Below, piece by piece: positions 1,151 to 64,000 of a DNA stretch of 64,000 nt (position 1 is the stretch's first letter; the number at the start of each line of letters is the position of its first letter). Below the pieces are notes generated by a model, which was given only the letters and a program-made list of their open reading frames with translations, was not told where the DNA came from and searched no databases. The stretch is from Topomyia yanbarensis. Its lineage: Eukaryota; Arthropoda; Insecta; Diptera; Culicidae. Position numbers and translations under genes: made by a program. The DNA lies in assembly GCF_030247195.1 (NCBI RefSeq), contig NC_080672.1, positions 186,546,872 to 186,610,871 of the forward strand, read 5' to 3'.

Positions 1151-1316
1151 TACACACATACATACACACAGATATTTTGCGATCTCGGCGAACTGAGTCG
1201 AATGTTATATGAGACTCGGCCCTCCGGGCCTCTGTTAGAAAGTCGGTTTTTGGAGCAATTGCATAACCTTTCTATATGAGAATGGCAAAAGAATAATATC
1301 TAATTAGCTTAATCAG
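1151..1316 (-). repeat. R-A repeat fragment, reverse orientation (TTTTGCC family)
   Basis: Reverse complement of the left end of the R-A repeat seen at 11320 and 17383. It contains the CATACA microsatellite edge, GCGATCTCG, the core GAGACTCGGCCCTCCGGGCC, and CTATATGAGAATGGCAAAAG. It runs on to AATTAGCTTAATCAG, which is the 3' end of the neighbouring R-B repeat. W1 sits in its microsatellite. Confidence 0.8.
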
Positions 1317-11319: not shown

Positions 11320-11479
11320 TTTTGCCTTTCTCATATAGAAAGGTTATGCAATTGCTCCAAAAACCGACTTTCTAACCGAGGCCCGGAGGACCGAGTCTCA
11401 TATAACATTCGACTCAGTTTGCCGAGATCGCAAAATATCCGTGTGTATGTATGTGTGTATGTATGTGTGTATGTGTGTG

Positions 11480-11511
<32 letters not shown>

Positions 11512-13025
11512 TGTATGTATGTATGTATGTATGTATGTATGTATGTATGTATGTATGTATGTATGTATGTATGTATGTATGTATGTATGTATGTATGTAT
11601 GTATGTATGTATGTATGTATGTATGTATGTATGTATGTATGTATGTATGTATGTACGTATGTATGTATGTATGTATGTATGTATGTATGTATGTATGTAT
11701 GTATGTATGTATGTATGTATGTATGTATGTATGTATGTATGTATGTATGTATGTATGTATGTATGTATGTATGTATGTATGTATGTATGTATGTATGTAT
11801 GTATGTATGTATGTATGTATGTATGTATGTATGTATGTATGTATGTATGTATGTATGTATGTATGTATGTATGTATGTATGTATGTATGTATGTATGTAT
11901 GTATGTATGTATGTATGTATGTATGTATGTATGTATGTATGTATGTATGTATGTATGTATGTATGTATGTATGTATGTATGTATGTATGTATGTATGTAT
12001 GTATGTATATTTGTATGTATGTATGTATGTATGTATGTATGTATGTATGTATGTATGTATGTATGTATGTATGTATGTATGTATGTATGTATGTATGTAT
12101 GTATGTATGTATGTATGTATGTATGTATGTATGTATGTATGTATGTATGTATGTATGTATGTATGTATGTATGTATGTATGTATGTATGTATGTATGTGG
12201 GTGTATCCGGATTTGTTAACAAAATGTCCACATCGGTTTCTCGGAGATGGCTGAACCGATTTTTAGAAACTAAGATTCAAATGAAAGGTATAATATTTCC
12301 ATAGGTTGCTATTGAATTTCATTATCAACCGACATCTTGTTCCGGATTACGAGTCGAAGAGTATGGTTACAAAACAAAATTTGTGGATTTGTCCACATCG
12401 GTTTCTCGGAATTTTCTGAACCGATTTTGACAAACTTGATTTTAAATGGAAGGTTCATCAGCTGCTGTTGAATTTTGTGTGGATCCGAGTTCTAGTTCCT
12501 GAATTACAGGGTGATACGTACGATCACGCAGCAAATCCCGATTCTAAAGAATTCTGCGATGAATGTAAAAAGGTGATTTTTTTTCCAAAATGTAAACACA
12601 ACTGTTGAATTTGTAGATCTAGGTCACCAATAGTCATTCAAAGTCTCTTTAGCCACACTGGCCACCATTGACGGATCCGGAAGCATCCAAATTCAGAATA
12701 TCGGTTATATTGGTTTCTCGAAAATGGCTAAAACGATTTGATCAACTTAGTCTCAAATGAAAGGTGTTGCGTCCCCGGAAACTGATATTAAATTCCATCT
12801 CCATCCGACTTTCTGCTCCGGAGCTACGGGTTGTGGAGGTCGATCACATAGAAAACTCCGATTAAAACCGATTCCGCGATGAATGAAAAAAGGTGCTCTT
12901 ACCAAGTGTAATAAGAATGAAAGACATTTCCATAATGCTATATTGTACGAACCAGCTATTAAATCATATTTTGGAGAAATGAGAAAGGCACAATTGCTCC
13001 ACTAGGTGGATTAAAACAGGTTTTT
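11320..13025 (+). repeat. R-A repeat, end to end, with expanded internal microsatellite
   Basis: The best complete copy of R-A. Left end TTTTGCCTTTCTCATATAGA, core CGAGGCCCGGAGGACCGAGT (one change in the palindrome), microsatellite 11450-12197, then ACAAAATGTCCACATCGG blocks. The right end is TGAGAAAGGCACAATTGC, CTAGGTGGATTAAAACAGGT, TTTT. Left GCCTTTCTCA and right TGAGAAAGGC form a short inverted repeat. I see no transposase, so this is a non-autonomous repeat of unknown class. Confidence 0.75.
11467..12197. repeat. (TATG)n microsatellite, about 0.73 kb
   Basis: About 180 nearly perfect TATG units, with isolated variants at about 11655 (CGTA) and 12008 (TATATTTG). It produces long artefactual open frames in all + frames (MYVC repeats) and on the minus strand (THTYI repeats). 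The flanks belong to R-A. Other copies of the same internal microsatellite are far shorter, for example about 0.11 kb at 17543-17650. Confidence 0.98.
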
Positions 13026-22326: not shown

Positions 22327-25302
22327 CTAGTTAGCCGTGCCCGTCGTCTGTTGCTCGGTTCGCCAGATTACCTGTAGCCTACTGGCAATCTGGATGGTAG
22401 CAGCCGAGACTGCGTTCCACTTCTCCACCGTTTGACACATCCGCTGAATAAGGGTATCCGGGGTTGTGTCCCAGCCACAGACGTCAAGCATTGCTCTTCT
22501 TTCGACGTCGAACCGATGACATACGAACAGTATGTGTTCGGCAGTTTCATCTACATCTGGGCAGTCCGGGCAGACTGGGACCTCCGCGTGTCCGAACCTG
22601 TGGAGGTACTGACGGAAACAGCCATGGCCTGACAGGAATTGTGTCAGGTGGAAGTGAACTTCCCTATGGGGTCTTCCCACCCAGCTCGATATGCTAGGTA
22701 TCAGCCGGTGGGTCCACCTACCTTTCGAGGAGTTGTCCCACTCACGCTGCCATCTGGCGACCGAGATCACCCTGGTGCGCTCGCGGGCTCCCCTATTTCC
22801 ACGTAGCTCAAAGCACTCCTCATCTTCCCGAATGACCAGCCCGACTGGCATCATGCTCGCTATCACGCAGGATGCATCGTGTGATACCGTGCGGTAGGCA
22901 GATATCACTCTGAGGCACATCACGCGGTAGGTGCTCTCCAGTTTCCGTAGGTAACTGGTTACCCTCAGTGCTCTTGACCATGACGGGCCGCCGTACCTGA
23001 GGATAGATACGGCAACGCCTGCCAGTAACCTACGTCTACTGGCGCACACCTTTGAGCTGTTGGACATCATTCTCGATAGTGCCGCAACAGCAGTCGACGC
23101 TCTCTTGCACGTATAGTCGACATGGCTGCCGAAGGTCAGCTTGTCGTCTATAACGACTCCGAGAGACTTCAGACTTCGCTGTGAAGTGATCGCGACTTCT
23201 CCCACGTGGATAACTGCATGTTGTGCCGACTTGCGGTTGTTGACGATAACTACCTCCGTCTTATGATGAGCGAGCTCCAGGCCTCTCGCGCTCATCCATT
23301 CCTCCACCGTGCTAATCGCGTGTTCTGCGGTTAGTTCTACCTCAGGAATTGACTCCCCGTAGACCTCCAAGGTTACGTCGTCGGCAAAGCCGACGATCTT
23401 GACCCCAGGAGGGAACTTCAGTCTCAGAACCCCGTCGTACATGAGGTTCCATAGCACCGGGCCTAGGATCGAGCCCTGCGGAACTCCGGCGGTAATCGGA
23501 ACCCTTTTCTGACCGGCATCGGTCTCGTATAGCAGTACGCGGCTTTGGAAGTAACTTTCCAGGATCCGGTACAGACCCACCGGTAGGCTAAGCCGGTGTA
23601 ACGAGTGCGCGATGGCATCCCAGCTTGCGCTGTTGAATGCGTTCTTCACGTCAAGTGTCACTAACGCACAGTATCGAATACCTCGCCTTTTTCGTTGGAT
23701 CGCTATCTCGGCAGTATTTATCACTGAGTTGAGAGCGTCCACTGTGGACTTACCCTTCCGAAAGCCAAACTGGTTGCTTGACAGACCGCCCGTACCTTCC
23801 GCGTACGGGGTGAGCCTGTTGAGGATGATCCTCTCAAGCAGTTTGCCAGTCGTGTCTATCAGACAGATTGGTCTGTACGCCGATGGGTCGCCTGGCGGCT
23901 TCCCGGGCTTCGGCAACAGCACCAGTTTCTGCCTTTTCCATCTATCGGGGAAACGGCACTCGTCAAGGCATCTCTGCATAGCTAGCCTGAACATGTTCGG
24001 GTTCGCTATGATCGCTGCCTTGAGAGCGTTGTTCGGAACTCCATCCGACCCTGGAGCTTTGTTCATTGCTAGGGATTTAGCCACTGCGAGTAGTTCTTCG
24101 TTCGTCACTGGAGCCACCATTTCGACCGTGCCCGCACTGTCTCGTAGTGCAGGTGGCCAGGGGCTTGTGGCTCGAGACGGGAAGAGTACTTCGATAATCG
24201 TTGCCAACCGGTCCGGAGACCGTTCTGGGGGTGAGGAGCCCCCTTTGGTCTTGGCCATCACAATCCGGTAGGCGTCACCCCACGGATTCGCGTTGGCACT
24301 CTCACACAGGTTGTCGAAACACGCTCTCTTGCTGCTTTTAATAGCCTTGTTAAGGGCTAATTTCGCAGCTCGAAACACTTCACGGCGGTTCACTCTTGCA
24401 TCCTCGGTGCGAGCTCTTTGCATCCTACGTCTAGCTCTGAGGCAGGCTGACCGTAGAGCTGCAATCTCGGCACTCCACCAGTATACCGGGCATCTGCCGT
24501 TTCTTGGCAGTGTTTTTCTCGGCATAGTGGCGTCGCACGCGCGTGATAGAACAGCTACCAGCGCATCCCCGCTTAGACTGTCGGTGTTGGCCTCCAGTCC
24601 CAGGGCCGCGGTGAAAGCTTCGCTGTCGAAGTGATTGGACTTCCACCCGCGTACCTGACAGGGATCTCCCGCCCTCGGATGCTGCACATCATAGTTGATC
24701 TTAAAGCGGATTGCTAAATGATCACTATGGGTGTAGCCTTCGTCTACCCTCCATTCCATGCCTGGAGCCAGGCTCGGGCTGGCAAAGGTCAAATCAATCC
24801 ACGCCTCCACTCCGTTTCTACGGAATGTACTAGCGGAGCCATCATTAGCTAGCACAGTATCGAGTTTCGCAAACGCTTCCATTAGCGCTTGACCCCTGCT
24901 ATTTGTACAGCGGCTGCCCCACTCCACTGCCCAAGCGTTGAAGTCTCCCGCTATTACTACCGGTTTCCGGCTCACTAGGTCCGACGAGAGCCTGTCGATC
25001 ATCTGGTAGAACTGTTCTATTGGCCACCTTGGTGGGGCGTAGCAGCTGCAATAGAACACACCATTGATCTTGGCAATCGCCACACCCTCGGCGGAGGGGT
25101 GTATTACCTCTTGAACCGGGAACCTTCCCGTTGTACAGATTGCCACCATTCCAGACCCGTCCGACATCCAATTGCCGTTGCCGGCAGGGATGCTGTACGG
25201 GTCTGATAAGAGGGCGACATCTGTCCTCGACTCCGAGACCGACTGCCACAGCAGCTGTTGGGCTGCTGCACAATGGTTAAGATTTAGCTGTGTGACTCTC
25301 AC
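22327..25302 (-). CDS. W3 ORF2: AP endonuclease, reverse transcriptase, zinc knuckle (991 codons)
   Basis: Polyprotein for nicking the target and reverse-transcribing the element RNA. AP-type endonuclease, residues ~5-200: LNLNHC, SDPY at 33-36, GDFNAWAVEWGS at 119-130, SDH at 193-195. RT, ~395-730: KAPGSDGVPN, PKPGKPPGDPSAYRPIC, FGFRKGKSTVDAL, VTLDVKNAFNSASW, GVPQGSILGP, and catalytic FADD at 639-642. C-terminal knuckle: CPDC 911-914, His 923, Cys 928. The frame opens with GTG, overlapping the ORF1 stop as GTGA. The first ATG is only at codon 46, inside the endonuclease, so initiation is probably by coupling or -1 shifting. The catalytic Glu expected before PY is Asp here (the second-family element has Glu). 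Confidence 0.93.
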   Translation of the reverse strand: MRVTQLNLNHCAAAQQLLWQSVSESRTDVALLSDPYSIPAGNGNWMSDGSGMVAICTTGRFPVQEVIHPSAEGVAIAKINGVFYCSCYAPPRWPIEQFYQMIDRLSSDLVSRKPVVIAGDFNAWAVEWGSRCTNSRGQALMEAFAKLDTVLANDGSASTFRRNGVEAWIDLTFASPSLAPGMEWRVDEGYTHSDHLAIRFKINYDVQHPRAGDPCQVRGWKSNHFDSEAFTAALGLEANTDSLSGDALVAVLSRACDATMPRKTLPRNGRCPVYWWSAEIAALRSACLRARRRMQRARTEDARVNRREVFRAAKLALNKAIKSSKRACFDNLCESANANPWGDAYRIVMAKTKGGSSPPERSPDRLATIIEVLFPSRATSPWPPALRDSAGTVEMVAPVTNEELLAVAKSLAMNKAPGSDGVPNNALKAAIIANPNMFRLAMQRCLDECRFPDRWKRQKLVLLPKPGKPPGDPSAYRPICLIDTTGKLLERIILNRLTPYAEGTGGLSSNQFGFRKGKSTVDALNSVINTAEIAIQRKRRGIRYCALVTLDVKNAFNSASWDAIAHSLHRLSLPVGLYRILESYFQSRVLLYETDAGQKRVPITAGVPQGSILGPVLWNLMYDGVLRLKFPPGVKIVGFADDVTLEVYGESIPEVELTAEHAISTVEEWMSARGLELAHHKTEVVIVNNRKSAQHAVIHVGEVAITSQRSLKSLGVVIDDKLTFGSHVDYTCKRASTAVAALSRMMSNSSKVCASRRRLLAGVAVSILRYGGPSWSRALRVTSYLRKLESTYRVMCLRVISAYRTVSHDASCVIASMMPVGLVIREDEECFELRGNRGARERTRVISVARWQREWDNSSKGRWTHRLIPSISSWVGRPHREVHFHLTQFLSGHGCFRQYLHRFGHAEVPVCPDCPDVDETAEHILFVCHRFDVERRAMLDVCGWDTTPDTLIQRMCQTVEKWNAVSAATIQIASRLQVIWRTEQQTTGTAN

Positions 25303-26771
25303 GGCTTCTTCTTATTTAACTCGCCGAAGGGACACGAAGGTCCGCCCATAGCATGTTTATGGGCTTGCTTCTTAGAGGTGCAGATAAGGCACTTATATGC
25401 CTTAGTGCATCCCCGCTCTTTATGCCCCTCCTCGCCGCATCGACGACATAGCTTGCTCCTGTCTATGCCATTGCATTCGTAAGCTTTATGGCCGGATTCT
25501 AGGCACCGATAGCACCTGTCCACTGAAGGCGGCTGGGGTATACTAATAGGGCATACCGACCAGCCGATCTTCAGCTTCCCTTTCTCGGTTACCTTTTTGG
25601 CATCCGCATTGAGTAGCCTGAGGTAGGCTACTTGGGTGCCAGAGGGTCCGTCCCTCAATCGCACAGAGGCCCGCTCGATTGTGACGCCGCAGTGCTCCTT
25701 GACGGCTGCGACGACGTCTTCTGCGGTCGCGAACTCGTCCAAGTGCTTGCACTGGAGAGTTGTTTCCGCACCTAGCGACCTGATTTGGGCGCCCTCGCCA
25801 AGGACCTCTTGAGCCAAGGCCTTATATATTGCACTTGATTGTGCGCCTCGCTTCAGCACCAGGAGCATCTCTCCCGTGTTGGTGCGTCTTACGCTACGCA
25901 CATCCTGCCCAAGGGCCGAGAGGCTTTCGGCCGCCTTCATCGATTTAAGGACATCGGCGTATTTGTCCTTGTCGGTTTTTAACCACAAGGCTTCGCCTCT
26001 GTCCTTGGCCTTCCTCGCAGGCCGCGGTACCTCCGGTTTCGGTGCCGGCTTTTTCTTGGTAACCAGCGTCCAGGGGTTTGAGCCCCCCTGCCCCGGTCGT
26101 GCCGGGTTGCTGGTACCATCGCTCTCCACAGCGAGGTCACTCTCGCCCTCACTTACCTCACCCAGGCGGCGTTTGACCTTGACGGTTGCACGCCGAGTGG
26201 TGTCGGTTTTGGCACCCTCTCCTGGCGACTTCCTAGGGCGCTTCGCATTCGATGCCGTCTTGCGATTGCCCTTTCCTTTTCCCTTCGAGGGGAACTCGGT
26301 CGCCGCTCCGATCGACGTGGCTGCTCCGTAGAAGGTAAAGGCCACTGTCTGTGAACCTCTATTGACCTTCTCTCTTTCCTCCCTATTGGAGGCCACTGTC
26401 TGGGTTTCTCTGTCGGGCCTCTCCCGACATTCCACCCTCTCAACATATGCCTGCTGTTCCTGTCTTGCGACACGAACAGCTTTCCGGAGCTCCAGAAGGC
26501 TCAACTTCAACTCCTTGGCTATGTTCTGCTTTGCGCTAGCGAAGTCGATTATAGCATCGAGTTGCTTCGCTACTTTGCGCATCGCAGCTATTGGCCCCTC
26601 CGATGCATTGGTAGGGGTATTGCCTACCGCTGCTGGGGGGTCACTGGTGCTTTCAGGTGCAGCACTCATCGCTCCACTACTCTCCCCACGGGGGGGAGAC
26701 CTCGCCAAACCACCTCTTGCGAAGGGGTTTGGCACCTCCGTCTGTTTATTTTTATTTTTATTTGCCTCCAT
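25299..26771 (-). CDS. W3 ORF1: gag-like RNA-binding protein (490 codons)
   Basis: ATG at 26771 (MEANKNKNKQTEVPNPFARG); an upstream in-frame GTG exists, but the ATG is preferred. The N-terminal half is charged and low in structure, with RK-rich nuclear-localisation-like stretches (KGKGNRKTASNAKRPRKSPG). The C-terminal part has the R1/Jockey ORF1 fold region and three knuckles at about residues 420-485: CYRCLESGHKAYEC, CRRCGEEGHKERGC, and a CLIC-type third. It ends GELNKKKP, with its TGA overlapping the ORF2 frame. It binds element RNA to form the transposition particle. Confidence 0.9.
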   Translation of the reverse strand: MEANKNKNKQTEVPNPFARGGLARSPPRGESSGAMSAAPESTSDPPAAVGNTPTNASEGPIAAMRKVAKQLDAIIDFASAKQNIAKELKLSLLELRKAVRVARQEQQAYVERVECRERPDRETQTVASNREEREKVNRGSQTVAFTFYGAATSIGAATEFPSKGKGKGNRKTASNAKRPRKSPGEGAKTDTTRRATVKVKRRLGEVSEGESDLAVESDGTSNPARPGQGGSNPWTLVTKKKPAPKPEVPRPARKAKDRGEALWLKTDKDKYADVLKSMKAAESLSALGQDVRSVRRTNTGEMLLVLKRGAQSSAIYKALAQEVLGEGAQIRSLGAETTLQCKHLDEFATAEDVVAAVKEHCGVTIERASVRLRDGPSGTQVAYLRLLNADAKKVTEKGKLKIGWSVCPISIPQPPSVDRCYRCLESGHKAYECNGIDRSKLCRRCGEEGHKERGCTKAYKCLICTSKKQAHKHAMGGPSCPFGELNKKKP

Positions 26772-27119
26772 GTATAGTCCCACGAGTAGCGCGAGAAATA
26801 TATGTCCGCCACGCCAGAGCTCCGCATTAGCGTGGTAAGGGACGCTTACTGTGGGGGTTGCCCAGGTACCCCACAGGCTCCGTTAACGATCGAGCATCTT
26901 TTTCACCCCCTCGATCACTCATCCCTCGGCACGGGTCGCTTCACGCCTTGGAATTGGGGTTATGCCCTACCTTGCTTTACGTGGTGATCTCGGCCCGGAT
27001 CATCACAACCATCCTCCTTTACCAGGGCTTTGGACCTGTAGCTCTGGTTCTCAATAGTTCCATGTACGTATGTTATTACAGACATGCTACTATTGGGATC
27101 CGTCATTCGCTAGCGGAGT
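26772..27119 (-). other. W3 5' UTR
   Basis: About 350 bp between the microsatellite target (27120) and the ORF1 ATG. GC-richer than its surroundings. No coding frame supported. The internal promoter expected for R1-clade elements should lie here, but no motif is assignable by eye. Confidence 0.6.
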
Positions 27120-38209: not shown

Positions 38210-38214
38210 GTCAT

Positions 38215-39255
38215 TGTAGTATATAATTGGTTTGGGTAATTAAATATCTAAAGTTGGTTAAAAATATCTACCGGTATATTACCATAGAACGAAAAAGGCT
38301 ATACTTTGCCGGAGGAATTCCTGCTTCAAGATATAGGTGAGAGGGGAGACTGCATTTGTGTGCAATAGTCTTGTTGATATAGACAAAGCACGAATGCGAG
38401 AAATGATGCCCGAAGTTGGGATGAATGCTGAGCAAATAAGGTGAACACGATTCTCTAATCGAGGCTACATGAGTGGTATGATAGTTGAGAGAGAGAGAGC
38501 GAGCGCACGATCGGAAACATTTCTCATATGTATATGCGACGCAGTCCTTCTATATATGGTCTACTTAATTAGGCCTTGCATTGGTATTCTAGGTCGAGTG
38601 ACGTCATTGTCCGAAAAAATTAGAACAAAATTTTCTGATAATGACGCCATTTCAAGAATGTATTAGTGGATTTGCGTGTAATATACAACTCAAATATGGA
38701 GAGTTGCTTTGGTGACATACGTCGGTTACGTTTCGTGTGGATGTCGGGAGATAGAGAGAGCGTAAGATTGAGGGAGAATTTCAATATAACGATGACGAAG
38801 AAGTTCTAGTCAGCGACATGCGTCTTTCACTGAGCTTTGGGAATAGCTCATTCGAGTTGTAAAGTACGAATTACACGATACGTCACGCTTGCGTCATTGG
38901 TACTGCCCGTCAGAGTAACGTCAGAATTAGTTACATAAGATACAAATAAATGGACCATTCATACACAACGTCAACGGAACGGAACGTTTTGACGTACGGG
39001 ACCTGAGAACGGGCACACGAGAAACGCATTTGAATTATCCTGACGGAACAGTGACGTAGCTGATGTATCGTCTGAATCGGGCTTATAAGACCGAACTTGG
39101 GGAGAGAGCGTAACTTAACACTAGAGAACGAGCGAAGGGTCGCAGTCGCTGGGATTGAACGTGAGCATCATTCTGTTGGCGAAATTTGACTCGATCGGTC
39201 GTGATTTTGTAGTTGTGCGTCGGTTGATTTAAAATGGCCACTAAGCGTCACGACA
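38215..39255 (+). repeat. 5' LTR of gypsy copy G1
   Basis: TGTAGTATATAATTGG ... AAGCGTCACGACA. A TATA-like GGGCTTATAAGACC lies at about 39080, with a likely start region GTAACTTAACACTAG about 30 bp downstream. An AATAAA lies at 38945-38950. The Gag start codon ATG (39234) lies 22 bp before the LTR end. Confidence 0.95.
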
Positions 39256-41185
39256 ATGGCGCAGTAGACGCTCCCGTTCGGTAAGTATACCTGGTCCGAA
39301 AATAGGTATAACTAGTAGGTATAAATGCGCTTACCATTAAATGGGGAGGCGACTAATAATGTAGCTCCCAGCGTCATGTTCATAGAAATCAAGAGCGACA
39401 TGAAGGGTTATTTTAATTGTAAAGTTTGTTGCAAAAAATATATAAAGTATAGGGAAATTTGAGCGAAAGGACTCAATAAAGGAAAGGAGCGAGAGGACTC
39501 CTGAAGAAAATGGAGCGGAAGGACTCCTAGGTAATTAAATAACTGGAGCGAGAGGACTCCTGAAGAAAATGGAGCGGAAGGACTCCTAGGTAATTACTTT
39601 ACTTTAGGTAAAAAAAAATAAAACAAACATAAATGGAACGGTAGGCCACCGGTGGTATAATGTTGCCGGAGCGAGAGGACTCCATAAAATACACAAGGCT
39701 TCAAAAAAAGAGGAGCGATGACGAGCTTTAATTATACGAACGAAAAAAAAATGGTCGAAACTAAAACAATAAAGCAAATAAAATAAACCCTTCTTCAATA
39801 AACAGAACATAACGCTAGGCAAAGTATATGAAATATAAATAACAGTATAACACACTTCATCGTAGTATTGTATAGTAGTTACGTATTAAGGTTACTATTA
39901 CTTTTTCAGAAAACTAAAGAAGAAAAACTCGAAATTGGACACAATAATGAAGGAATTAGAGCAAGAAAAGCTTGCCAGGGCAGAGTTGGGAAAGCAGCTC
40001 GAGAAGGCTAACGAAACTATGATGGCTCTGCAGGCAAGTTTAAGAACACCGCGCAGTGAAAGTGTGGATAGCACAGCGTTCTCAGGATATGTAGGTCCTT
40101 CCAGTACCCAACACCAACGAAATGAGTCGGGTGCTGAAATGTCACGATTCATGACGTCAGTGAACCAAATGTCCATTACCTCTATTACTGTACCGGAGTG
40201 TAAGCCCTCTGTAGCTGGTGAGCAGATTGGACGTCGCGACTATCAATTATGGATTGATCTATTGACGGATTCGCTGAAGTTAGCGGGAGTAGAGGCTGAG
40301 TCGACTAAATTCGTGATCTTCAAAGTAAAAGCCGGACCACTTCTGCTAGACATCTTTAAGAACACAAAGTCGTCTCCAGAGAGCCCCGATGAGGCAGAAT
40401 ACCCTTATGCAAACGCCTTGTTCAGACTGAATGCGTACTTTGGGTCCGCTTCGGATATTATGTTGCAGCGCCGTAAGCTGGCATTGATGGTGCAGGATCC
40501 GGTGGAATCAGATTTATCATTCATAATGAGAGTCGGTTCTACGGCTCGGATGTGCGACTTCAAGGATGGGAAGCAGTTCGAAGAAATCGTCAATGCTGTT
40601 GCGACTCATGCAAGAAACAAAGACGTGCGTATCGTAGCTCTTAAAATGCTCAATCGTCAAGGTTCATTTACGGAATTGGTTGATGCGGTCCGAGAAATCG
40701 AAGCGGTTTCGATCAACGAAGCATATTATCGTTTGCAGCACGGCACGCCAGAGCAAACTAATGTGGCGGCGGTTAGCGCCGCTTTTCCAAGAGCGGGTTT
40801 GTCACGTCGAAATACCAATCGTCCTGGTGTTCGTGGCAGATTTGGACAACAATATCCGAACCACTCCAGATACGCCTTCCATCGGTATACGGACCGGAAA
40901 GGATTCGGAAACACTCAGGAGGCGGAAGCTTATCGCTGCTTCAGATGTAATAGCGTCTATCACAAAGCGGAGGATTGTTTTGCCATCGATAAGATCTGTC
41001 TAAAATGCGGTCGTAAGGGTCACATTCAAAGAGCGTGTCGCCCAACACACCCCAAGGAAGACCGTCGCGGAATGGGAGAAGAGCAATCGGATGTCAAGCC
41101 TGGAAAGATTGCGGCTATTGACGTCGAAGTTGTAGCGGAAGCAGAGGAGCAATCGGACGACAAAAATGTAGGTGTTACCAACTAA
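39234..41185 (+). CDS. gag: Gag of gypsy G1, two coding exons (39234-39280, 39910-41185)
   Basis: Exon 1 (MATKRHDNGAVDAPV) starts in the LTR and crosses the primer-binding-site region to CG|GTAAGT. The acceptor ATTACTTTTTCAG|A joins it in frame to LKKKNSKLDTIMKELEQEKL, giving 440 residues. N-terminal coiled-coil-like segment (KELEQEKLARAELGKQLEKA), central capsid-like region, two CCHC knuckles near 40930-41040 (CFRCNSVYHKAEDC, CLKCGRKGHIQRAC), acidic tail. Stop TAA at 41183 lies inside intron 2, so this protein needs intron 2 retained. The exon-2 frame has no ATG until codon 4, which supports the spliced start, though internal initiation at that ATG is an alternative. Confidence 0.85.
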
Positions 41186-44100
41186 GTTATCGGCGATGAA
41201 CAAGATGATTTACATATGGAAATTTGAATTTGTCTATTTGCTATTAATGAGTTGAAGTTGAAAAAAAGAATAATAATAAAAAAATGAATAAATAAAAGAT
41301 GACTTCGAGTATTTCCTAGTATATCAATGTTTATAATGATAGATTAGATCGTTTTTACGTCTGGTTAATAAACTTTTATTTGCAGTTGCATATTGCAACA
41401 TTTACGACAACGAATTCAACAGCTGACGTTGGTACCATAATGGCAACAGTCGCAGGATTGAAGTGTGAGTTTCTCATAGACTCTGGGGCTCAGGTGAACA
41501 CAATAACTGAACAGCGATTTGCCATACTGTGCACAGAGGATCAATACAGGAAAGAACTATATAATGTTCAGGATAGTACCGATCGGCCTCTAAGGGCATA
41601 TGCAACTGCTGGCGAGATAGAAGTGCTATCAACCTTTGAGGCATACATGTATATATCGGAAAACAGACCAACCCTACTCGAAAAATTCTATGTTGTGAAG
41701 GAATGCCGGTCTCTTTTAGGACGTGCTACGGCAACTCGATATAGTGTTCTACTGCTCGGGTTGCAGGTCCCAGTAAATCCAGTGAAGAGCAGGTCACATT
41801 CGTGGTACGAAGCGGACGAGATTGCATCGGTAGTGGTAGACCAAGTTTTTCCCAAATTCAATATCCCTCCAGTGCACATAAGTTACGACAGAACAAGACC
41901 ACCATGCCGCAACATCTTTATGAATATTCCGATTGCGGTTAAGCCGATGGTTGAGAATCGGTTGAAACAGCTTCTTTCGGCAGGGATTATTGAGCAGGTT
42001 ACGAACGAAATGGACAACTCGTTTTGTTCGTCAATGCTAGCAATACCCAAGGGAAAGGATGACATAAGGTTAGTTATTGACCTTAGAGGACCTAACAGCT
42101 ACATCGAAAGATCTCCGTTTGCCATGCCGAGCCTGGAAAAAATTCTTGCTGAATTAGACGGGGCACAGTGGTTCTCGACTATAGATTTGGTCAACGCATA
42201 TTTTCACATCGAGCTTGACGAGAAAAGTCGTCATCTGACGAATTTCTGCACCGAGTTTGGCATGTTCCGGTGCGTTAGATTGCCATTCGGGCTATGCAAC
42301 GCACCGGACATTTTCCAGGAGGTGTTGCAGCGTAGGATTCTCGGAGGATGTAGTGGTGTTAAAAATTATTTAGACGATATCCTTGTCTACGGGAAAACTC
42401 CAGAAGAGCACGACGAGAACTTAGAAGCGGTTATGGCACGACTTCGAGAGCACAACGTACAAATTAATGTATCTAAATGTGTATTCAAGAGTCAATCCGT
42501 TAAGTTCATCGGATTTAAATTAACTCCGGAAGGCTGGCAAATAGAGGAAGAAAAAATGCGAGCTATTGAAGAGTTCAGAACACCAGAAACTATCGCAGAG
42601 GTGAAGAGTTTCTTGGGTTTGGCGACGTTCGTCGACAAGTTTGTGCCACATCGAGCAACGCGAACTGAAAAGTTGCGTGCGTTGGCTAACGCAGAAAGTT
42701 TTTATTGGTCCGCCGAAGAAGAATTAGAATTCCAAGCATTTAAGAAGGAAGCATTGCATCTTATTAAAACACTTGGTTATTACAACACGTCGGACAGAAC
42801 GGAGATATTTGTCGATGCGTCAGCTGTCGGCCTCGGAGCCATCTTAGTACAGTTCAATAACGTTGGAATACCGAGAATCATAGCTTGTGCGTCCAAAGCT
42901 CTAACCACAACTGAGCAGCGGTATCCTCAAACACACCGAGAAGCTCTAGCGGTGGTGTGGGGCGTCGAACGATTTGCGTACTATTTGTCGAGCAGATCGT
43001 TCATTATCAGAACAGATGCCGAAGCAAATCAATTTATTTTTGGCGGAAAGCATCGTATCGGCAAGCGAGCAGTTTCGCGAGCAGAAGCGTGGGCTTTGCG
43101 TTTACAACCTTTCGACTTCTCTATTGAACGAGTACCAGGTGAATTCAATCATGTTTTGAAAAAAATAATGGAATGGTAACAAACTAACGAATACTTATTG
43201 AAATAGGCGATGAAAACGTTGCAGATGTTATGTCAAGGCTATTACATAACTCCCAGGAGGCTGAACCGTTCGACGATAGCTGTGAGAATCACGTATTGTT
43301 TGTCTTGGATATTGGCAATATGGAAATTTCCCTAGCAGAAATTGAAGGGGCTACCGAGTCGGATGAAGAGTTGATACAAGTAATTGAGGCCCTTAAGTGC
43401 GACAAATGGCCCCGGGATTTACGCAAATATGAAGCGCAGAAGAGCAACCTCCACCATCTCGGTTCATTGGTTTGTAAAGACGGTAAAATTGTTCTTCCTC
43501 ATTCTTTGCGACGAAGAGCCATGGAATCCGCTCATGGGGGGCACGTGGGAGAAGTCGCCATGAAAAGAATCATGCGCGAATTCTTCTGGTGGCCACGCAT
43601 GGCTTCAGAAACTGAGCTGTTTGTCAAACAATGCCAAACATGTTGTATGTTGTCCAGAAAAAATCCCCCGTTGCCTATTTCATCTCGTGATCTTCCCGAG
43701 GGCCCGTGGGAAATCATTCAAACGGATTTTCTTTCTATTCCGAATTATGGAACAGGAGACTTTCTAACTGTGGTAGATACATACTCTCGCTATCTCTCAG
43801 TTGTCGAGATGAAGCGAAAAACAGCTGAAGCGACCAACGCTGCGCTCTGTGAAATCTTCAAACTTTGGGGATGTCCTCGCATTTTGCAGAGTGATAACGG
43901 TCCACCATTTAATAGTACAACATTTTGTTCATTCTGGGAAAATAAGGGGGTGAAAGTTCGGAAGTCGATACCGTTAAATCCTCAATCAAATGGGCTCATT
44001 GAGCGACATAACCAGTCTATAATTAAAGCCGTATCAGCTTCTACAATAGACGGTTCTAATTGGCGTAGGAGCTTGGAAACATTCGTACACAACCACAATA

Positions 44101-44702
44101 CGCTGATTCCACATGCACGACTCATGGTCACGCCGTTCGAACTGCTGGTAGGCTTTAAATACCGTGGTCAATTTCCAAGTCTTTGGAATGAATACCGTTT
44201 CAAGGAACTGGACCGCGAAAACGTACGTGAATTAGACAAAGAAGCCAAATTAAATAGCAAGTATTACGCGGACGAGGTACGAGGAGCAAAGGAGAGCCGT
44301 ATTAAGGTGGGCGATGTCGTGTTGATGAGCCAGCAAAAGAAATTCAAAAGTGACCCGACGTTTCCATCGGAGCGATTCACGATAATAGCACGAACAGGGG
44401 CAAAAGTAGTCGTTATGAGCGGTAATGGGGTGCAATATACCAGGAATGTGCAGGACGTAAAATTGGCTCCACCAACACAAGAGATAGATAATTCGAAACA
44501 GGAAGAAATTCAGGACGAAGTGCATCAAAATTCAGATAATGAGGGAAGGAGAGTTATATCAGAGAACGATTCAGAAAATCACTATATAAATTTTCCAGGT
44601 TGCGATAAGCCGAGCGTTGATAAAGCCACGCGCCGACAGCGGGTCAACATAAAACGACCGGCCAGGTTCAATGACAGTTATGTTTATCGTGTGTACCAAT
44701 AA
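39234..44702 (+). CDS. pol: Gag-Pol of gypsy G1, four exons (39234-39280, 39910-41167, 41386-43138, 43207-44702)
   Basis: Spliced length 4,554 nt, 1,517 codons plus stop, in frame at every junction. After Gag: protease with DSGA at 41479; RT with FSTIDLVNAYFHIE and catalytic YLDD at 42367; RNase H with FVDASAVGLGAILVQ, ALAVVWGVE and RTD; the last RNase H motif VPG|DENVADVMSRL is split by intron 3. Integrase: HHCC zinc finger (HGGHVGE ... CQTCC, 43530-43645) and DDE core (QTDFL, QSDNGPPF, NPQSNGLIERHN), then a basic C-terminus. No chromodomain or env is recognised. Without splicing, pol would be three separate frames lacking start codons. Confidence 0.85.
39257..39274 (+). other. Putative tRNA primer-binding site
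   Basis: TGGCGCAGTAGACGCTCC starts one base after the 5' LTR. It begins with the TGG expected opposite a tRNA 3' CCA end. The tRNA is not assigned. It lies within coding exon 1. Confidence 0.6.
39281..39909 (+). other. Intron 1 of gypsy G1 (629 nt)
   Basis: Donor CG|GTAAGTATA, acceptor TTACTATTACTTTTTCAG|A. The interior has direct repeats of GGAGCGAGAGGACTCCTGAA with GAAAATGGAGCGGAAGGACT (starts at 39486 and 39545, period 59; a partial third at 39668). These purine-rich blocks could act in splicing or packaging. The same intron is at 61480-62107 in copy G2. Confidence 0.85.
41168..41385 (+). other. Intron 2 of gypsy G1 (218 nt): Gag/Gag-Pol switch
   Basis: Donor AAAAAT|GTAGGT, acceptor CTTTTATTTGCAG|TTGCAT, branch-point-like GGTTAATAAA about 25 nt upstream. 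Phase 0 on both sides, so Gag codon AAT joins Pol codon TTG. The Gag stop codon is inside the intron. Same sequence at 63366-63583. Confidence 0.8.
43139..43206 (+). other. Intron 3 of gypsy G1 (68 nt) in the RNase H-integrase boundary
   Basis: Donor CCAG|GTGAAT, acceptor TTGAAATAG|GCGATG, with a consensus branch point CTAAC (43185-43189) about 18 nt before the acceptor. Splicing rebuilds the conserved V-P-G-D-E-N-V-A-D motif exactly. Retention ends the protein after 13 extra codons at TAA 43177-43179. Its size is typical for dipteran introns. Confidence 0.88.
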
Positions 44703-44793: not shown

Positions 44794-44824
44794 AAAGAAA
44801 GGAAATGGGAGTAGAGGTGGGGAA
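44794..44824 (+). other. Polypurine tract of gypsy G1
   Basis: AAAGAAAGGAAATGGGAGTA then GAGGTGGGGAA immediately before the 3' LTR, the expected plus-strand primer. Confidence 0.75.
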
Positions 44825-44827
44825 TAT

Positions 44828-45872
44828 TGTAGTATATAATTGGTTTGGGTAATTAAATATCTAAAGTTGGTTAAAAATATCTACCGGTATATTACCATAG
44901 AACGAAAAAGGCTATACTTTGCCGGAGGAATTCCTGCTTCAAGATATAGGTGAGAGGGGAGACTGCATTTGTGTGCAATAGTCTTGTTGATATAGACAAA
45001 GCACGATGGCGAGAAATGATGCCCGAAGTTGGGATGAATGCTGAGCAAATAAGGTGAACACGATTCTCTAATCGAGGCTACATGAGTGGTATGATAGTTG
45101 AGAGAGAGAGAGAGAGCGAGCGCACGATCGGAAACATTTCTCATATGTATATGCGACGCAGTCCTTCTATATATGGTCTACTTAATTAGGCCTTGCATTG
45201 GTATTCTAGGTCGAGTGACGTCATTGTCCGAAAAAATTAGAACAAAATTTTCTGATAATGACGCCATTTCAAGAATGTATTAGTGGATTTGCGTGTAATA
45301 TACAACTCAAATATGGAGAGTTGCTTTGGTGACATACGTCGGTTACGTTTCGTGTGGATGTCGGGAGATAGAGAGAGCGTAAGATTGAGGGAGAATTTCA
45401 ATATAACGATGACGAAGAAGTTCTAGTCAGCGACATGCGTCTTTCACTGAGCTTTGGGAATAGCTCATTCGAGTTGTAAAGTACGAATTACACGATACGT
45501 CACGCTTGCGTCATTGGTACTGCCCGTCAGAGTAACGTCAGAATTAGTTACATAAGATACAAATAAATGGACCATTCATACACAACGTCAACGGAACGGA
45601 ACGTTTTGACGTACGGGACCTGAGAACGGGCACACGAGAAACGCATTTGAATTATCCTGACGGAACAGTGACGTAGCTGATGTATCGTCTGAATCGGGCT
45701 TATAAGACCGAACTTGGGGAGAGAGCGTAACTTAACACTAGAGAACGAGCGAAGGGTCGCAGTCGCTGGGATTGAACGTGAGCATCATTCTGTTGGCGAA
45801 ATTTGACTCGATCGGTCGTGATTTTGTAGTTGTGCGTCGGTTGATTTAAAATGGCCACTAAGCGTCACGACA
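44828..45872 (+). repeat. 3' LTR of gypsy copy G1
   Basis: Nearly identical to the 5' LTR: GAATGC versus GATGGC near 45006, and two extra GA units near 45105. It also carries the ATG exon start (45851), but not the GTAAGT donor, which lies outside the LTR. Confidence 0.95.
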
Positions 45873-45877
45873 GTCAT

Positions 45878-48480
45878 CATTCCTTTTTATCTTTGAATAC
45901 GATAGAAAAGAACGGAAGTTAATCGAAGATGTGACTGACTGGTTTTATTTTGTTTAATATGATGCAGTTATTTAAATACATTAGAATGATTGAAACAAAA
46001 AAGAATATAACGTGACAGGACTATTCGATAAAATCAGGTAACATTGCTTTTCTCTATTCTGTCTACTACTTCTGGTAATAAATCCGAATTCATTTTTAGT
46101 AGCATTATATCCTTTATAGCTACGTCGCTGAGTCTCATCCTAGAATCAGTCAGTATGTACTTGACTGCACAGACGTTCAACCGCTACCTGTGTTGAAGGT
46201 GCAGATAGTACAATCATGGCAAGCCGATATAAACGAGGGTTTGAAAATTTCCTCTTCTTCCAGTATTGAAAAATATCAAAACGAGGAACCGTCGATGGAG
46301 TTATAATGCTGGTATTTGGATCACCAGGTTCAGCTGCTGTTGTGAATTGTTGAGCTTTGTATATACTGTTAGTGGATTGTTGTAAAGGGAGGCATGAGAT
46401 GCCAGATGACTGCACAGAATTACCAGCAGTGATGTTAACTTTTTCTCTGTTTTCCAGTTTCATCAGATCAAACAATAAACATTCGTTTACTGAATTCTTG
46501 GCAGAACTGGATGCACTGTTGTCCAAAACTTCTTCATTGAAAAAAATCATCAAATCCTCGATGAAACCGGTGTTGGGTGGTGCTTTTGCTTCTCCACCCC
46601 TCTCCTCTTTCAACCCATTTATGTCGTCCAAGCGGTTATTCAATACAATGAGGTATTCCTGAAAAGAAATGTTCATCCATAAAATGATCACATTTTGTAT
46701 GAAATATAAAGGTACCTGCACATCTTTCTTATCGCTCGTACTTAATCTACCTGATCCAGCAAAATTGAAACGTGGATCCAAGAACAAACTAGCTTTGAAG
46801 GCCATGCTTTCACTGAGCTTATGGATTCTTTTTTCCATTGATGCTAGCAATTTCGCAGCCAATGTGTTGTGCCCGTTTTCAATGGCGTGTAGTTCAGCCT
46901 GGCAGATCAACCAATCAGCATAGAAATCGGAAAGGGGAACGTGATCTTTTTGCAATTTGAGAGTCAACACATATATTGGTTTGAACGCTTCGCAGAAACG
47001 ATCGACGAACGACCAGTGATTTTTCAAATCTGTGAGATAACAAAAAAATTTCAATATTGTATAAATAAATGTAGAACTTGAATAATGACGATTAATACTA
47101 ACCTAGCGATGGATCCTGACTCTGTAAGATTATCAACAATGGTTTGGATCTTAGAGCTTGAAAGTATCGTAGTAGAAGAAACCATACATTCCACCGGGTT
47201 TCGTTTACCTTAGGCGGCAAAGGTATTTTGTGTAGTACAAAAAGTTGACGGTTGACTTTGTGATGCATCATAAGACATATTTTATTAATACGTGCCAATC
47301 TTGTCTTATGCAATTTAATGACGTCAAACGCAACAAGTTGAGCCCCACATCTAACGCTATTCAGGATTTCGAGGTCTCCAAACTTGTCAGTAATTATGGA
47401 ATCGGCGCTACCATCTCGCTCGATTTCAAAATCATCAGTTTGTTCAGATGTAGTATCGTTGCTATCGTCATCTGTTCCATTGTCTGCTTCGTCATTTGCT
47501 TCGACGTCTATTTCATCGTCACTTTCTGTTTCCAGGAAGTCCTTATGATGGAATTCATTTAATAATTCGTTCTCAGCTGTCAGCATACTGCGCCATGGTA
47601 CAGCTTCATCGGTGAATGTTTCCATCAATTGTTTAAGGAGCCGTACAGTGGCACACATATTGGCACCATTGTCATGTGCAATGGCGAAAATCTCCCGAAT
47701 TTCCAATCCGAACTCGTCCAATTCTTGTTCAAGAACTTTTGCCAGATTTTCTGTCGTTTGCCGTTCGTTTATCTCATGCACAGCTTTGAGGATGAAAACA
47801 GAATGAACATATGAAAAAGAGCCGATTGGATTTTTGGAATTAGTGATGCACTTACCTAGATGTATTATTTTAATGTTGTCTTCGTCATCGGCATGAATTG
47901 ATACCGAACACAGATCGCCCTCGTCGGGATGCAGAATCGATTTTGATGCTCACTAATTTTTTGTAACAGCTTTTTTTACAAATTCCGTAAGACCTCTACG
48001 TGTCATTTGTAAACCGGATGCCTTTAACAAGGGATGTAGTAGCGTTTTGGAACCGGACCATTCAATGAAATTGAATGGCAGGCTGTTACATGACACAAAC
48101 TGAAGAAGTCCAAGAAGCACGTTGCGCTTATCCATTTCAACGAGCAGCTTTGAAACTCTTGGTTTTTTGGAGGAAGGCTCTACTTCGACTTTATCGTCCA
48201 GCGCCAATTCCTGCAGGACATTCGGATGGTTGCTATGGAAATGTCGTTTAAAATTACCCGCGACAAATGACTTTCTCTGCTCGTAAGAGCACTTTCGAAC
48301 ACTGTCAATATCAACAGCGCAACGGTAAACGATTGTTTCGCCGTCCTGCACTTTCTCCACAACCTGCAAAATTTTCTCTTTCTGAGTTTTTGTTTTTGAT
48401 TCATTCTCACTATGAACGCTACCACTCTCAATCAGAAATTAATTGGATAAAACGTTTCAACTTTTCACACGCAATCGGAT
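45878..48480 (-). pseudogene. hAT transposase gene with introns, decayed
   Basis: Minus strand. A zinc-finger (BED-like) exon at 47953-48445 has YRCAVD ... C ... H-x4-H (HFHSNH). Then an exon at 47856-47950 (HPDEGDLCSVSIHADDED), in a frame not continuous with the first, with much of the early catalytic region absent. Then intron 47784-47855 (donor GTAAGT), exon 47103-47783 (IAHDNGANM, ETRWNVWFLLLRYFQAL), intron 47030-47102 (donor GTTAGT), and exon below 47029 with SFVDRFCEAFKPIYVLTLKL. The hAT dimerisation motif reads LSAPSTQVAVERL and then shifts frame by a small deletion near 46185. Both introns splice in frame. It is inactive, but its structure is legible. Confidence 0.8.
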
Positions 48481-61149: not shown

Positions 61150-61432
61150 TGGACCATTCATACACAACGTCAACGGAACGGAACGTTTTGACGTACGGGA
61201 CCTGAGAACGGGCACACGAGAAACGCATTTGAATTATCCTGACGGAACAGTGACGTAGCTGATGTATCGTCTGAATCGGGCTTATAAGACCGAACTTGGG
61301 GAGAGAGCGTAACTTAACACTAGAGAACGAGCGAAGGGTCGCAGTCGCTGGGATTGAACGTGAGCATCATTCTGTTGGCGAAATTTGACTCGATCGGTCG
61401 TGATTTTGTAGTTGTGCGTCGGTTGATTTAAA

Positions 61433-63383
61433 ATGGCCACTAAGCGTCACGACAATGGCGCAGTAGACGCTCCCGTTCGGTAAGTATACCTGGTCCGAAA
61501 ATAGGTATAACTAGTAGGTATAAATGCGCTTACCATTAAATGGGGAGGCGACTAATAATGTAGCTCCCAGCGTCATGTTCATAGAAATCAAGAGCGACAT
61601 GAAGGGTTATTTTAATTGTAAAGTTTGTTGCAAAAAATATATAAAGTATAGGGAAATTTGAGCGAAAGGACTCAATAAAGGAAAGGAGCGAGAGGACTCC
61701 TGAAGAAAATGGAGCGGAAGGACTCCTAGGTAATTAAATAACTGGAGCGAGAGGACTCCTGAAGAAAATGGAGCGGAAGGACTCCTAGGTAATTACTTTA
61801 CTTTAGGTAAAAAAAATAAAACAAACATAAATGGAACGGTAGGCCACCGGTGGTATAATGTTGCCGGAGCGAGAGGACTCCATAAAATACACAAGGCTTC
61901 AAAAAAAGAGGAGCGATGACGAGCTTTAATTATACGAACGAAAAAAAAATGGTCGAAACTAAAACAATAAAGCAAATAAAATAAACCCTTCTTCAATAAA
62001 CAGAACATAACGCTAGGCAAAGTATATGAAATATAAATAACAGTATAACACACTTCATCGTAGTATTGTATAGTAGTTACGTATTAAGGTTACTATTACT
62101 TTTTCAGAAAACTAAAGAAGAAAAACTCGAAATTGGACACAATAATGAAGGAATTAGAGCAAGAAAAGCTTGCCAGGGCAGAGTTGGGAAAGCAGCTCGA
62201 GAAGGCTAACGAAACTATGATGGCTCTGCAGGCAAGTTTAAGAACACCGCGCAGTGAAAGTGTGGATAGCACAGCGTTCTCAGGATATGTAGGTCCTTCC
62301 AGTACCCAACACCAACGAAATGAGTCGGGTGCTGAAATGTCACGATTCATGACGTCAGTGAACCAAATGTCCATTACCTCTATTACTGTACCGGAGTGTA
62401 AGCCCTCTGTAGCTGGTGAGCAGATTGGACGTCGCGACTATCAATTATGGATTGATCTATTGACGGATTCGCTGAAGTTAGCGGGAGTAGAGGCTGAGTC
62501 GACTAAATTCGTGATCTTCAAAGTAAAAGCCGGACCACTTCTGCTAGACATCTTTAAGAACACAAAGTCGTCTCCAGAGAGCCCCGATGAGGCAGAATAC
62601 CCTTATGCAAACGCCTTGTTCAGACTGAATGCGTACTTTGGGTCCGCTTCGGATATTATGTTGCAGCGCCGTAAGCTGGCATTGATGGTGCAGGATCCGG
62701 TGGAATCAGATTTATCATTCATAATGAGAGTCGGTTCTACGGCTCGGATGTGCGACTTCAAGGATGGGAAGCAGTTCGAAGAAATCGTCAATGCTGTTGC
62801 GACTCATGCAAGAAACAAAGACGTGCGTATCGTAGCTCTTAAAATGCTCAATCGTCAAGGTTCATTTACGGAATTGGTTGATGCGGTCCGAGAAATCGAA
62901 GCGGTTTCGATCAACGAAGCATATTATCGTTTGCAGCACGGCACGCCAGAGCAAACTAATGTGGCGGCGGTTAGCGCCGCTTTTCCAAGAGCGGGTTTGT
63001 CACGTCGAAATACCAATCGTCCTGGTGTTCGTGGCAGATTTGGACAACAATATCCGAACCACTCCAGATACGCCTTCCATCGGTATACGGACCGGAAAGG
63101 ATTCGGAAACACTCAGGAGGCGGAAGCTTATCGCTGCTTCAGATGTAATAGCGTCTATCACAAAGCGGAGGATTGTTTTGCCATCGATAAGATCTGTCTA
63201 AAATGCGGTCGTAAGGGTCACATTCAAAGAGCGTGTCGCCCAACACACCCCAAGGAAGACCGTCGCGGAATGGGAGAAGAGCAATCGGATGTCAAGCCTG
63301 GAAAGATTGCGGCTATTGACGTCGAAGTTGTAGCGGAAGCAGAGGAGCAATCGGACGACAAAAATGTAGGTGTTACCAACTAA
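61433..63383 (+). CDS. gag: Gag of gypsy G2 (exons 61433-61479 and 62108-63383)
   Basis: Start codon in the LTR remnant, donor GTAAGT at 61480, acceptor TTTTTCAG at 62107. The exon-2 frame from 62133 translates identically to G1 over 416 residues, including both zinc knuckles. Stop TAA at 63381 in intron 2. Independent preservation of every splice signal supports the spliced gene model, although the two copies are too similar to prove selection. Confidence 0.85.
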
Positions 63384-63583
63384 GTTATCGGCGATGAACA
63401 AGATGATTTACATATGGAAATTTGAATTTGTCTATTTGCTATTAATGAGTTGAAGTTGAAAAAAAGAATAATAATAAAAAAATGAATAAATAAAAGATGA
63501 CTTCGAGTATTTCCTAGTATATCAATGTTTATAATGATAGATTAGATCGTTTTTACGTCTGGTTAATAAACTTTTATTTGCAG

Positions 63584-64000
63584 TTGCATATTGCAACGTT
63601 TACGACAACGAATTCAACAGCTGACGTTGGTACCATAATGGCAACAGTCGCAGGATTGAAGTGTGAGTTTCTCATAGACTCTGGGGCTCAGGTGAACACA
63701 ATAACTGAACAGCGATTTGCCATACTGTGCACAGAGGATCAATACAGGAAAGAACTATATAATGTTCAGGATAGTACCGATCGGCCTCTAAGGGCATATG
63801 CAACTGCTGGCGAGATAGAAGTGCTATCAACCTTTGAGGCATACATGTATATATCGGAAAACAGACCAACCCTACTCGAAAAATTCTATGTTGTGAAGGA
63901 ATGCCGGTCTCTTTTAGGACGTGCTACGGCAACTCGATATAGTGTTCTACTGCTCGGGTTGCAGGTCCCAGTAAATCCAGTGAAGAGCAGGTCACATTCG
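63584..64000 (+). CDS. pol: Pol of gypsy G2, third exon, partial (protease region)
   Basis: Follows acceptor TTTTATTTGCAG (63583). Reads LHIATFTTTNSTADVGTIMA and protease FLIDSGAQVNTIT, open to the window end. In a spliced transcript it follows the Gag exon ending at 63365. Confidence 0.85.
   Translation, partial: MHIATFTTTNSTADVGTIMATVAGLKCEFLIDSGAQVNTITEQRFAILCTEDQYRKELYNVQDSTDRPLRAYATAGEIEVLSTFEAYMYISENRPTLLEKFYVVKECRSLLGRATATRYSVLLLGLQVPVNPVKSRSHS

What the first reader, a model, noticed from the sequence alone, without database searches (positions are those of the whole stretch)
39234..44702. A Ty3/gypsy element whose Gag-Pol needs three spliceosomal introns
Seen: three gaps between open frames coincide with GT...AG pairs (39281-39909, 41168-41385, 43139-43206). 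Removing all three gives one 1,517-codon frame and rebuilds the conserved RNase H end V-P-G-D-E-N-V-A-D exactly. Intron 3 has a CTAAC branch point and typical dipteran size (68 nt). Known: most Ty3/gypsy elements use one ORF or frameshifting; plant Ogre elements have an intron between gag-pro and pol. A multi-intron gypsy element in an insect would be unusual, because its genomic RNA must escape splicing while its mRNA must be spliced.
Basis: partly seen in the sequence, partly recalled or inferred. Interest (0 to 1): 0.92.

Follow-up and report, generated by a model that had tools for sequence, protein, structure and literature searches.

The report
Mosquito retrotransposon clade with introns
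A family of virus-like jumping genes in mosquitoes keeps its protein-coding gene split by ordinary introns, and one genomic copy has lost one of them exactly at its splice sites, so these parasites seem to use the host's splicing machinery to make their proteins while still copying an unspliced genome.

Summary
A full-length Ty3/gypsy element (LTRs 38215-39255 and 44828-45872, TSD GTCAT) has gag, PR-RT-RH and IN exons separated by three AT-rich GT-AG gaps at the stated coordinates.

It is not a lone oddity. Introns 1 and 2 recur across related elements: exon 1 carries the start codon and tRNA-Ser primer site with a donor just after it, and gag ends at a phase-0 donor in 21 of 22 scored loci. 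One recent insertion with its own TSD lacks intron 2 exactly from GT to AG while a 99.5%-identical sister keeps it: a retro-processed copy. Database proteins from other mosquitoes start with the predicted exon 1 joined to gag.

Intron 3 is younger: absent at 48 of 48 other-family places examined here, but relatives outside this assembly with 83-84% identical exon 3 are interrupted at the same codon by unrelated sequence. Another family has a different pol intron.

No RNA reads were available. Roles are inferred: intron 1 separates genome RNA from mRNA; intron 2 sets Gag versus Gag-Pol. My ten paper searches found no such description.

The parts
38210..38214 (.). target-site duplication GTCAT, left copy (right copy 45873-45877)
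38215..39255 (+). 5' LTR (TGTAG...CGACA)
   Evidence: 99.4% identical to the 3' LTR
39234..39280 (+). exon 1: start codon inside the LTR, predicted MATKRHDNGAVDAPVR
   Evidence: database proteins P0001, P0005, P0071, P0196 start alike
39257..39275 (+). primer binding site for tRNA-Ser, two 8-nt blocks (TGGCGCAG and ACGCTCCC) that skip the T arm
39281..39909 (+). intron 1 (629 nt, GTAAGT...TTTTTCAG; holds imperfect tandem repeats and 12 ATGs)
39910..41167 (+). exon 2: gag with zinc knuckles; without splicing it reads on to the stop at 41185
41168..41385 (+). intron 2 (218 nt, GTAGGT...TTTGCAG, phase 0)
   Evidence: the same position is lost in retro-copy L042 of a sister family
41386..43138 (+). 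exon 3: protease, reverse transcriptase, RNase H
43139..43206 (+). intron 3 (68 nt; CTAAC at 43184-43188)
43207..44702 (+). exon 4: end of RNase H, integrase, stop
44794..44824 (+). purine-rich stretch before the 3' LTR, probable polypurine tract (label recalled, not tested)
44828..45872 (+). 3' LTR
61150..64000 (+). copy B, truncated 5' LTR, running past the window; shares A's 3' flank

Best explanation
This is a recently active, env-less LTR retrotransposon of a mosquito Ty3/gypsy clade whose Gag-Pol mRNA is made by spliceosomal splicing. Shown by comparative sequence: three intron-like gaps that evolve as non-coding DNA; introns 1 and 2 shared across the clade; intron 2 removed from an RNA that was later reverse-transcribed and integrated (in a sister family); intron 3 and another pol intron present only in sublineages. 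Inferred: the unspliced RNA is the genome. With intron 1 retained, the start codon opens only a 9-24-codon leader, so that RNA makes no Gag from it and is free for packaging. Splicing intron 1 alone gives Gag mRNA, which stops just inside intron 2. Splicing all introns gives Gag-Pol, so splicing takes the place of the frameshift that sets the Gag to Gag-Pol ratio in other elements. Intron 1 probably carries the packaging signal.
For: Retro-processed copy L042 lacks exactly the 300-nt GTAAGT...GTCACAG intron 2 that its sister L043 has; both are separate insertions with TSDs TATAC and TTAAC. Phase-0 donor at the gag end in 21 of 22 scored loci, some of them near-copies; 58 of 62 scorable gag homologs (of 75) end in V[SG], the in-frame image of that donor, against 418 of 3315 windows elsewhere. 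Exon 1 plus donor at 39 places, 0 for the reversed control. Database proteins with the predicted joins: P0001, P0005, P0071, P0196, P0009, P0198. Exons conserved and free of indels, introns not. Same-codon interruption of pol in relatives and a second pol intron in L045, L046, L051. Leader ORFs of 9-24 codons in 7 of 7 families read.
Against: No RNA evidence. Intron 3 is in 0 of 48 other-family places examined in this genome, and P0219, inside a clade with the interrupted site, reads through. The same-site relatives of intron 3 were seen as protein only, from unnamed contigs; a contig end can also stop an ORF. I do not know whether the database proteins rest on reads. One retro-copy among 115 gag matches is one event, and in another family than A. 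One of 22 gag ends (L087) lacks the donor.
Confidence: 0.85

Rival explanations
1. Introns 1 and 2 are real, but the 68-nt segment in pol is an inactivating insertion carried along by non-autonomous copies that borrow integrase from intact relatives.
For: Absent from 48 of 48 other-family places with the site. Only four places in the genome hold it; B is a duplicated segment, C has one stop in gag, D has four deletions in exon 4.
Against: GT...AG and CTAAC at the exact bases that restore the conserved VPGDENVAD. Exon 4 behind it has 10 substitutions and no indel between A and C. P0076 and P0200, the nearest relatives outside this assembly, are interrupted at the same codon by unrelated sequence, P0200 by 21 in-frame residues with the integrase intact behind them.
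Confidence: 0.1
2. Gag and Pol are separate ORFs; pol is expressed by internal initiation or a ribosomal bypass, and the gaps are not introns.
For: gag and pol frames do not overlap; elements with two ORFs are the usual description in mosquitoes (PMC3286476, passages).
Against: The retro-processed copy lacks exactly GT...AG. Donors and acceptors are conserved with phase while the introns between them are not.
Confidence: 0.03
3. The interrupted frames are decay or assembly error in dead copies.
For: B is a truncated duplicate; C and D carry disabling changes.
Against: Three TSD-flanked insertions share the layout; A's LTRs are 99.4% identical and its exons are open.
Confidence: 0.01

Closest known systems
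Mosquito Mag-lineage Ty3/gypsy elements (for example cqgypsy_24, _25, _66; PMC3286476, passages seen)
   Same: tRNA-Ser primer site and mostly 5-bp TSDs in that table; some have tandem repeats in the 5' UTR, as intron 1 has here
   Different: The passages describe one or more ORFs and no introns in the elements. LTRs are listed as about 120-300 nt for Mag rows, about 1040 here. RT-based membership was not tested.
Plant Ogre (Ty3/gypsy)
   Same: Transcripts spliced between ORFs (PMC3735527, passage); as I recall the intron lies between gag-pro and pol, so splicing makes the longer product
   Different: Plant element; here a further 5' intron just after the primer site and introns inside pol. 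The Ogre paper itself (PMC2596294) was not held.
copia, BARE1 and EVADE (Ty1/copia)
   Same: Splicing makes separate RNAs from one element (PMC3735527, PMC12786077, passages)
   Different: In copia and BARE1 the spliced RNA makes Gag only; here splicing is needed for Gag-Pol.
Cer1 of C. elegans (Gypsy/Ty3-related)
   Same: An animal Ty3/gypsy element with a spliced mRNA (PMC12786077, passage; PMC3315495 seen as a listing only)
   Different: There the spliced mRNA encodes a protein needed for export of the unspliced RNA, by that passage; no multi-intron gag-pol is mentioned in it.

Membership tests
Ty3/gypsy LTR retrotransposon | LTRs with TG...CA ends and short TSD | tested here: met
Ty3/gypsy LTR retrotransposon | order RT, RNase H, integrase | tested here: met
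   Pfam on exons 3 and 4
Mag lineage | primer site for tRNA-Ser (or tRNA-Leu) | tested here: met
   lineage trait from PMC3286476 passages
Mag lineage | RT phylogeny with Mag reference elements | not tested
   no reference Mag sequence was at hand
Spliceosomal introns (the three gaps) | GT...AG ends that restore the frame | tested here: met
Spliceosomal introns (the three gaps) | non-coding evolution of the segment with constrained exons | tested here: met
   introns pooled; intron 3 alone too short to test (0 changes A-C; 1 substitution and a 4-nt deletion A-D)
Spliceosomal introns (the three gaps) | intron-less retro-copies | tested here: inconclusive
   met for intron 2 in a sister family; none for intron 1 (one acceptor class); none for intron 3 among the A copies
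Spliceosomal introns (the three gaps) | spliced RNA observed | not testable with these tools
   no reads at hand
Ogre-type elements | plant Tat/Ogre lineage RT | not tested
   compared by mechanism only

The most novel reading that the evidence does not exclude
A whole mosquito retrotransposon clade runs its life cycle by nested splicing. Intron 1, whose donor abuts the tRNA primer site, separates genome RNA from mRNA and must stay in packaged RNA; retention versus splicing of intron 2 sets Gag against Gag-Pol; further short introns have been gained more than once inside pol. The genome's copies then record which introns the packaged RNAs still had.
Probability: 0.5. Interest if true: 0.9.

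Novelty: new variant of a known kind. Interest (0 to 1): 0.8.

Why it matters
Elements that move through RNA are expected to lose introns in transit. A recently active clade that keeps a 5' intron, keeps one at the gag-pol boundary and has others inside pol implies that genome RNA is kept apart from mRNA, and makes that separation testable, because each insertion records which introns its RNA had. It also shows how splicing could replace frameshifting in setting Gag to Gag-Pol. ORF-based annotation would call such elements broken or two-ORF, so coding-competent elements in mosquito genomes may be undercounted.

Tried and rejected
Private insertion for all three introns: rejected, introns 1 and 2 recur across families. 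Intron 3 as a duplicate of its flanks or of the element: similarity no better than shuffles (19 of 200 and 26 of 200 reach it, reverse strand 109 of 200). Intron 3 as a genomic repeat: 4 matches, all in copies of this element. B as an independent insertion: rejected, it shares A's 3' flank to the end of the compared stretch.

Limits of my own steps. One search printed minus-strand loci unturned and served for plus-strand loci only; one search turned them. In one search the script did not find the L040 and L071 acceptors; L040's was read by eye. In one search the label rules misfiled rows; P0085, P0105 and P0157 were relabelled by hand and unlabelled long rows set to 'through' by rule; the tree holds 117 of 221 rows (those with the whole core region). 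P0200 and P0256 stood as 'through' there and only one search showed their in-frame inserts. Recurrent end sites LDTG, YLTG and LQPYNF in foreign pol proteins are weaker intron candidates: a contig end can stop an ORF too. In one search, 13 of 75 gag homologs were dropped (8 without the second zinc knuckle, 5 with a long tail). In one search, 8 of 30 loci had no scorable gag end; L087 was scored and lacks the donor; near-copies are included. One search printed one line in a wrong frame, not used.
Full report
WHAT IS THERE. The window holds a complete LTR retrotransposon: 5' LTR 38215-39255, 3' LTR 44828-45872 (99.4% identical, 2 mismatches and 1 gap) and a 5-bp target-site duplication GTCAT. 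Between them lie three open stretches in three frames: 39890-41185, 41320-43179 and 43188-44702. Pfam on the pieces taken apart gives RVT_1, RT_RNaseH, RT_RNaseH_2, then Integrase_H2C2 and rve, the Ty3/gypsy order. Only 125 bases separate the last stop from the 3' LTR, so there is no room for env.

HOST AND COPIES. G000 has contigs of 217,786,545, 470,223,097 and 428,584,394 bases, the lengths given for contigs of Topomyia yanbarensis proteins P0009, P0133 and P0198; the host is very probably that mosquito. The 68-nt intron 3 was found at four places. A (window), C (C1:128.87 Mb) and D (C2:234.96 Mb) are separate insertions with TSDs GTCAT, GTACG and GGGGA. B (window 61150 onward) shares A's 3' flank and has a truncated 5' LTR, so it is a duplicated segment, or a duplication in the assembly. 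A and C differ by 27 substitutions and no indel in 4554 exon bases, but by 15 substitutions and 7 indels in 915 intron bases; A and D have no indel in exons 1-3 (3058 nt) and 9 in the introns (p=1.9e-6). Against full function of the copies: D's exon 4 has four deletions and C's gag has one stop.

INTRON 2 IS SPLICED IN THIS CLADE. In one search one relative had an open frame of 1532 aa where two rows of the same score had 1095. Fetched (L042) and compared with one of these (L043), the two agree at 2875 of 2889 aligned positions over gag and upstream and at 318 of 318 over pol, but L042 lacks a 300-nt segment that begins GTAAGT and ends GTCACAG. They are separate insertions (TSDs TATAC and TTAAC), and the two LTRs of L042 agree except for one gap over the stretches compared. 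This is what a spliced RNA leaves when it is reverse-transcribed and integrated. Intron 1 is retained in L042. Among 115 gag matches it is the only one with a gag frame longer than 507 aa (114 of 4707 candidates were scored, so counts are lower bounds).

INTRONS 1 AND 2 RECUR ACROSS THE CLADE. Four other families (L038-L041) show LTR end, ATGGCGCAG..., donor GTRAGT, and an acceptor before gag that keeps the frame in phase 1; intron lengths are 373, 550 and 807 nt in the three measured. L043 has the layout with donor GTAAGA and 897 nt. A degenerate pattern for exon 1 plus donor occurs at 39 places, 34 exactly, with 0 for the reversed control. At the gag end 21 of 22 scored loci have a phase-0 GTRRGY within 16 codons of the stop; several are near-copies, L087 lacks it, and 8 of 30 loci could not be scored. 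Of 75 gag homologs from public proteins 62 could be scored and 58 end in V[SG] within 14 residues, the in-frame image of GTRAGT or GTAGGT, against 418 of 3315 windows elsewhere; shared descent makes these rows non-independent. Five loci of different families (L011, L014, L016, L022, L026) have a short exon between gag and pol and a second short intron of 60-70 nt. Database proteins fit: P0001 (Ae. albopictus) starts MASKRHDNGAVDAPVRKMKKK, P0005 (Wyeomyia smithii, isoform X1) MAEKRHDNGAVDAPEKKMKKK, P0071 (Ochlerotatus camptorhynchus) MAGKRHDNGAVDAPERKIKKK, P0196 (Toxorhynchites rutilus) MASKGHDNGAVNASDRKTKKK; the window predicts MATKRHDNGAVDAPVR then KLKKK. P0196 also joins gag to LHIAT, the first residues of exon 3, and P0009 and P0198, of this genome, carry joins predicted from DNA. 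Whether those proteins rest on reads I do not know.

INTRON 3 AND ANOTHER POL INTRON. At the RNase H/integrase boundary 26 of 26 non-A loci of the first set read through, as do L044 and L095. Of 20 further places 17 have no intron there, some with private indels or frameshifts, and 3 copies of one family (L045, L046, L051) have an 86-nt GTCAGT...TGTCTAG segment about ten codons further on, whose removal gives ALSR^LVNET. L100 has the site deleted. So intron 3 is in 0 of 48 other-family places with the site. Relatives outside this assembly tell more: P0076 (84% identical in exon 3), P0090, P0092, P0096, P0100 and P0102 end within 26 residues after the same V-[PS]-G, mostly with residues that GTAAG or GTGAG would give, and P0200 (83% in exon 3, 76% in exon 4) and P0256 carry 21 and 20 unrelated in-frame residues exactly there, with the conserved sequence resuming behind. 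Conserved exons with unrelated sequence at one fixed codon is what a persisting intron looks like, but these were seen as protein only, their organisms are not named, and P0219 in one such clade reads through. On a tree of 117 pol cores A groups with P0076 and P0200 (support 99), the other same-site carriers form a separate clade, and six ALSR-site proteins form one clade.

HOW IT MAY WORK (inferred). With intron 1 retained the start codon gives only 9-24 codons in 7 of 7 families read, and A's intron 1 holds 12 ATGs. So the unspliced RNA should be a poor mRNA and can serve as genome. Removing intron 1 gives Gag, which stops just inside intron 2; removing the rest gives Gag-Pol. A search for intron-1-less junctions gave 3 matches, each with one mismatch and each reading GTAAA after the exon, so none spliced, while intron 2 has been lost once. 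This fits a packaging signal in intron 1, but rests on one event and one class of acceptor. The primer site is for tRNA-Ser: in L041 16 bases match a tRNA-Ser end of this genome without a break, while in A and L042/L043 two 8-base blocks match the acceptor end and the variable arm and skip the T arm.

WHAT IS KNOWN. In the passages seen, PMC3286476 describes mosquito Mag-lineage elements with tRNA-Ser or tRNA-Leu primer sites, some with tandem repeats in the 5' UTR, and no introns in them; PMC5248466 mentions no introns of the elements; PMC5718144 treats introns as elements, not within LTR elements; PMC3735527 and PMC12786077 name spliced LTR elements: copia, BARE1, Ogre, CRR, Bagy2 env, EVADE, Cer1. 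Ten searches of the held library listed no paper on introns in gag-pol of mosquito or other insect Ty3/gypsy elements by title or abstract; I read passages of five papers only. Subscription papers are mostly not held, so this is no proof that it is unpublished.

VERDICT. Confirmed, and larger than reported: a clade-wide variant of a known kind. The weakest links are the lack of RNA and the single retro-copy, and for intron 3 the protein-only evidence from relatives.

Noticed in passing
39257-39275; exon 1 of L042/L043 and L041: Primer site in A and L042/L043 is bipartite: 8 nt match the tRNA-Ser acceptor end and 8 nt the variable arm, skipping the T arm; in L041 16 nt match without a break.
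   Followed up: partly
61150-64000 and L035: Copy B: same element about 22.2 kb downstream, truncated 5' LTR, shares A's 3' flank; segmental duplication or assembly duplication.
   Followed up: partly
L045, L046, L051: A different pol intron (86 nt, GTCAGT...TGTCTAG) in another family, about ten codons after the intron-3 site.
   Followed up: partly
P0078, P0080, P0085, P0088 (LDTG); P0093, P0105, P0109 (YLTG); P0115, P0119, P0122, P0129, P0137 (LQPYNF): Pol proteins from other contigs end at three more recurrent sites, possible further introns; contig ends not excluded.
   Followed up: no
22330-26882 (-), 8397-10157 (-), 1308-3193 (+): Non-LTR-type retroelement pieces: RVT_1 and endonuclease domains, one with a zinc knuckle ORF.
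   Followed up: no
46149-47102 (-): hAT-type transposase remnant next to the element (Dimer_Tnp_hAT).
   Followed up: no
11444-12198: Array of about 189 TGTA units, which gives long spurious ORFs on both strands.
   Followed up: no
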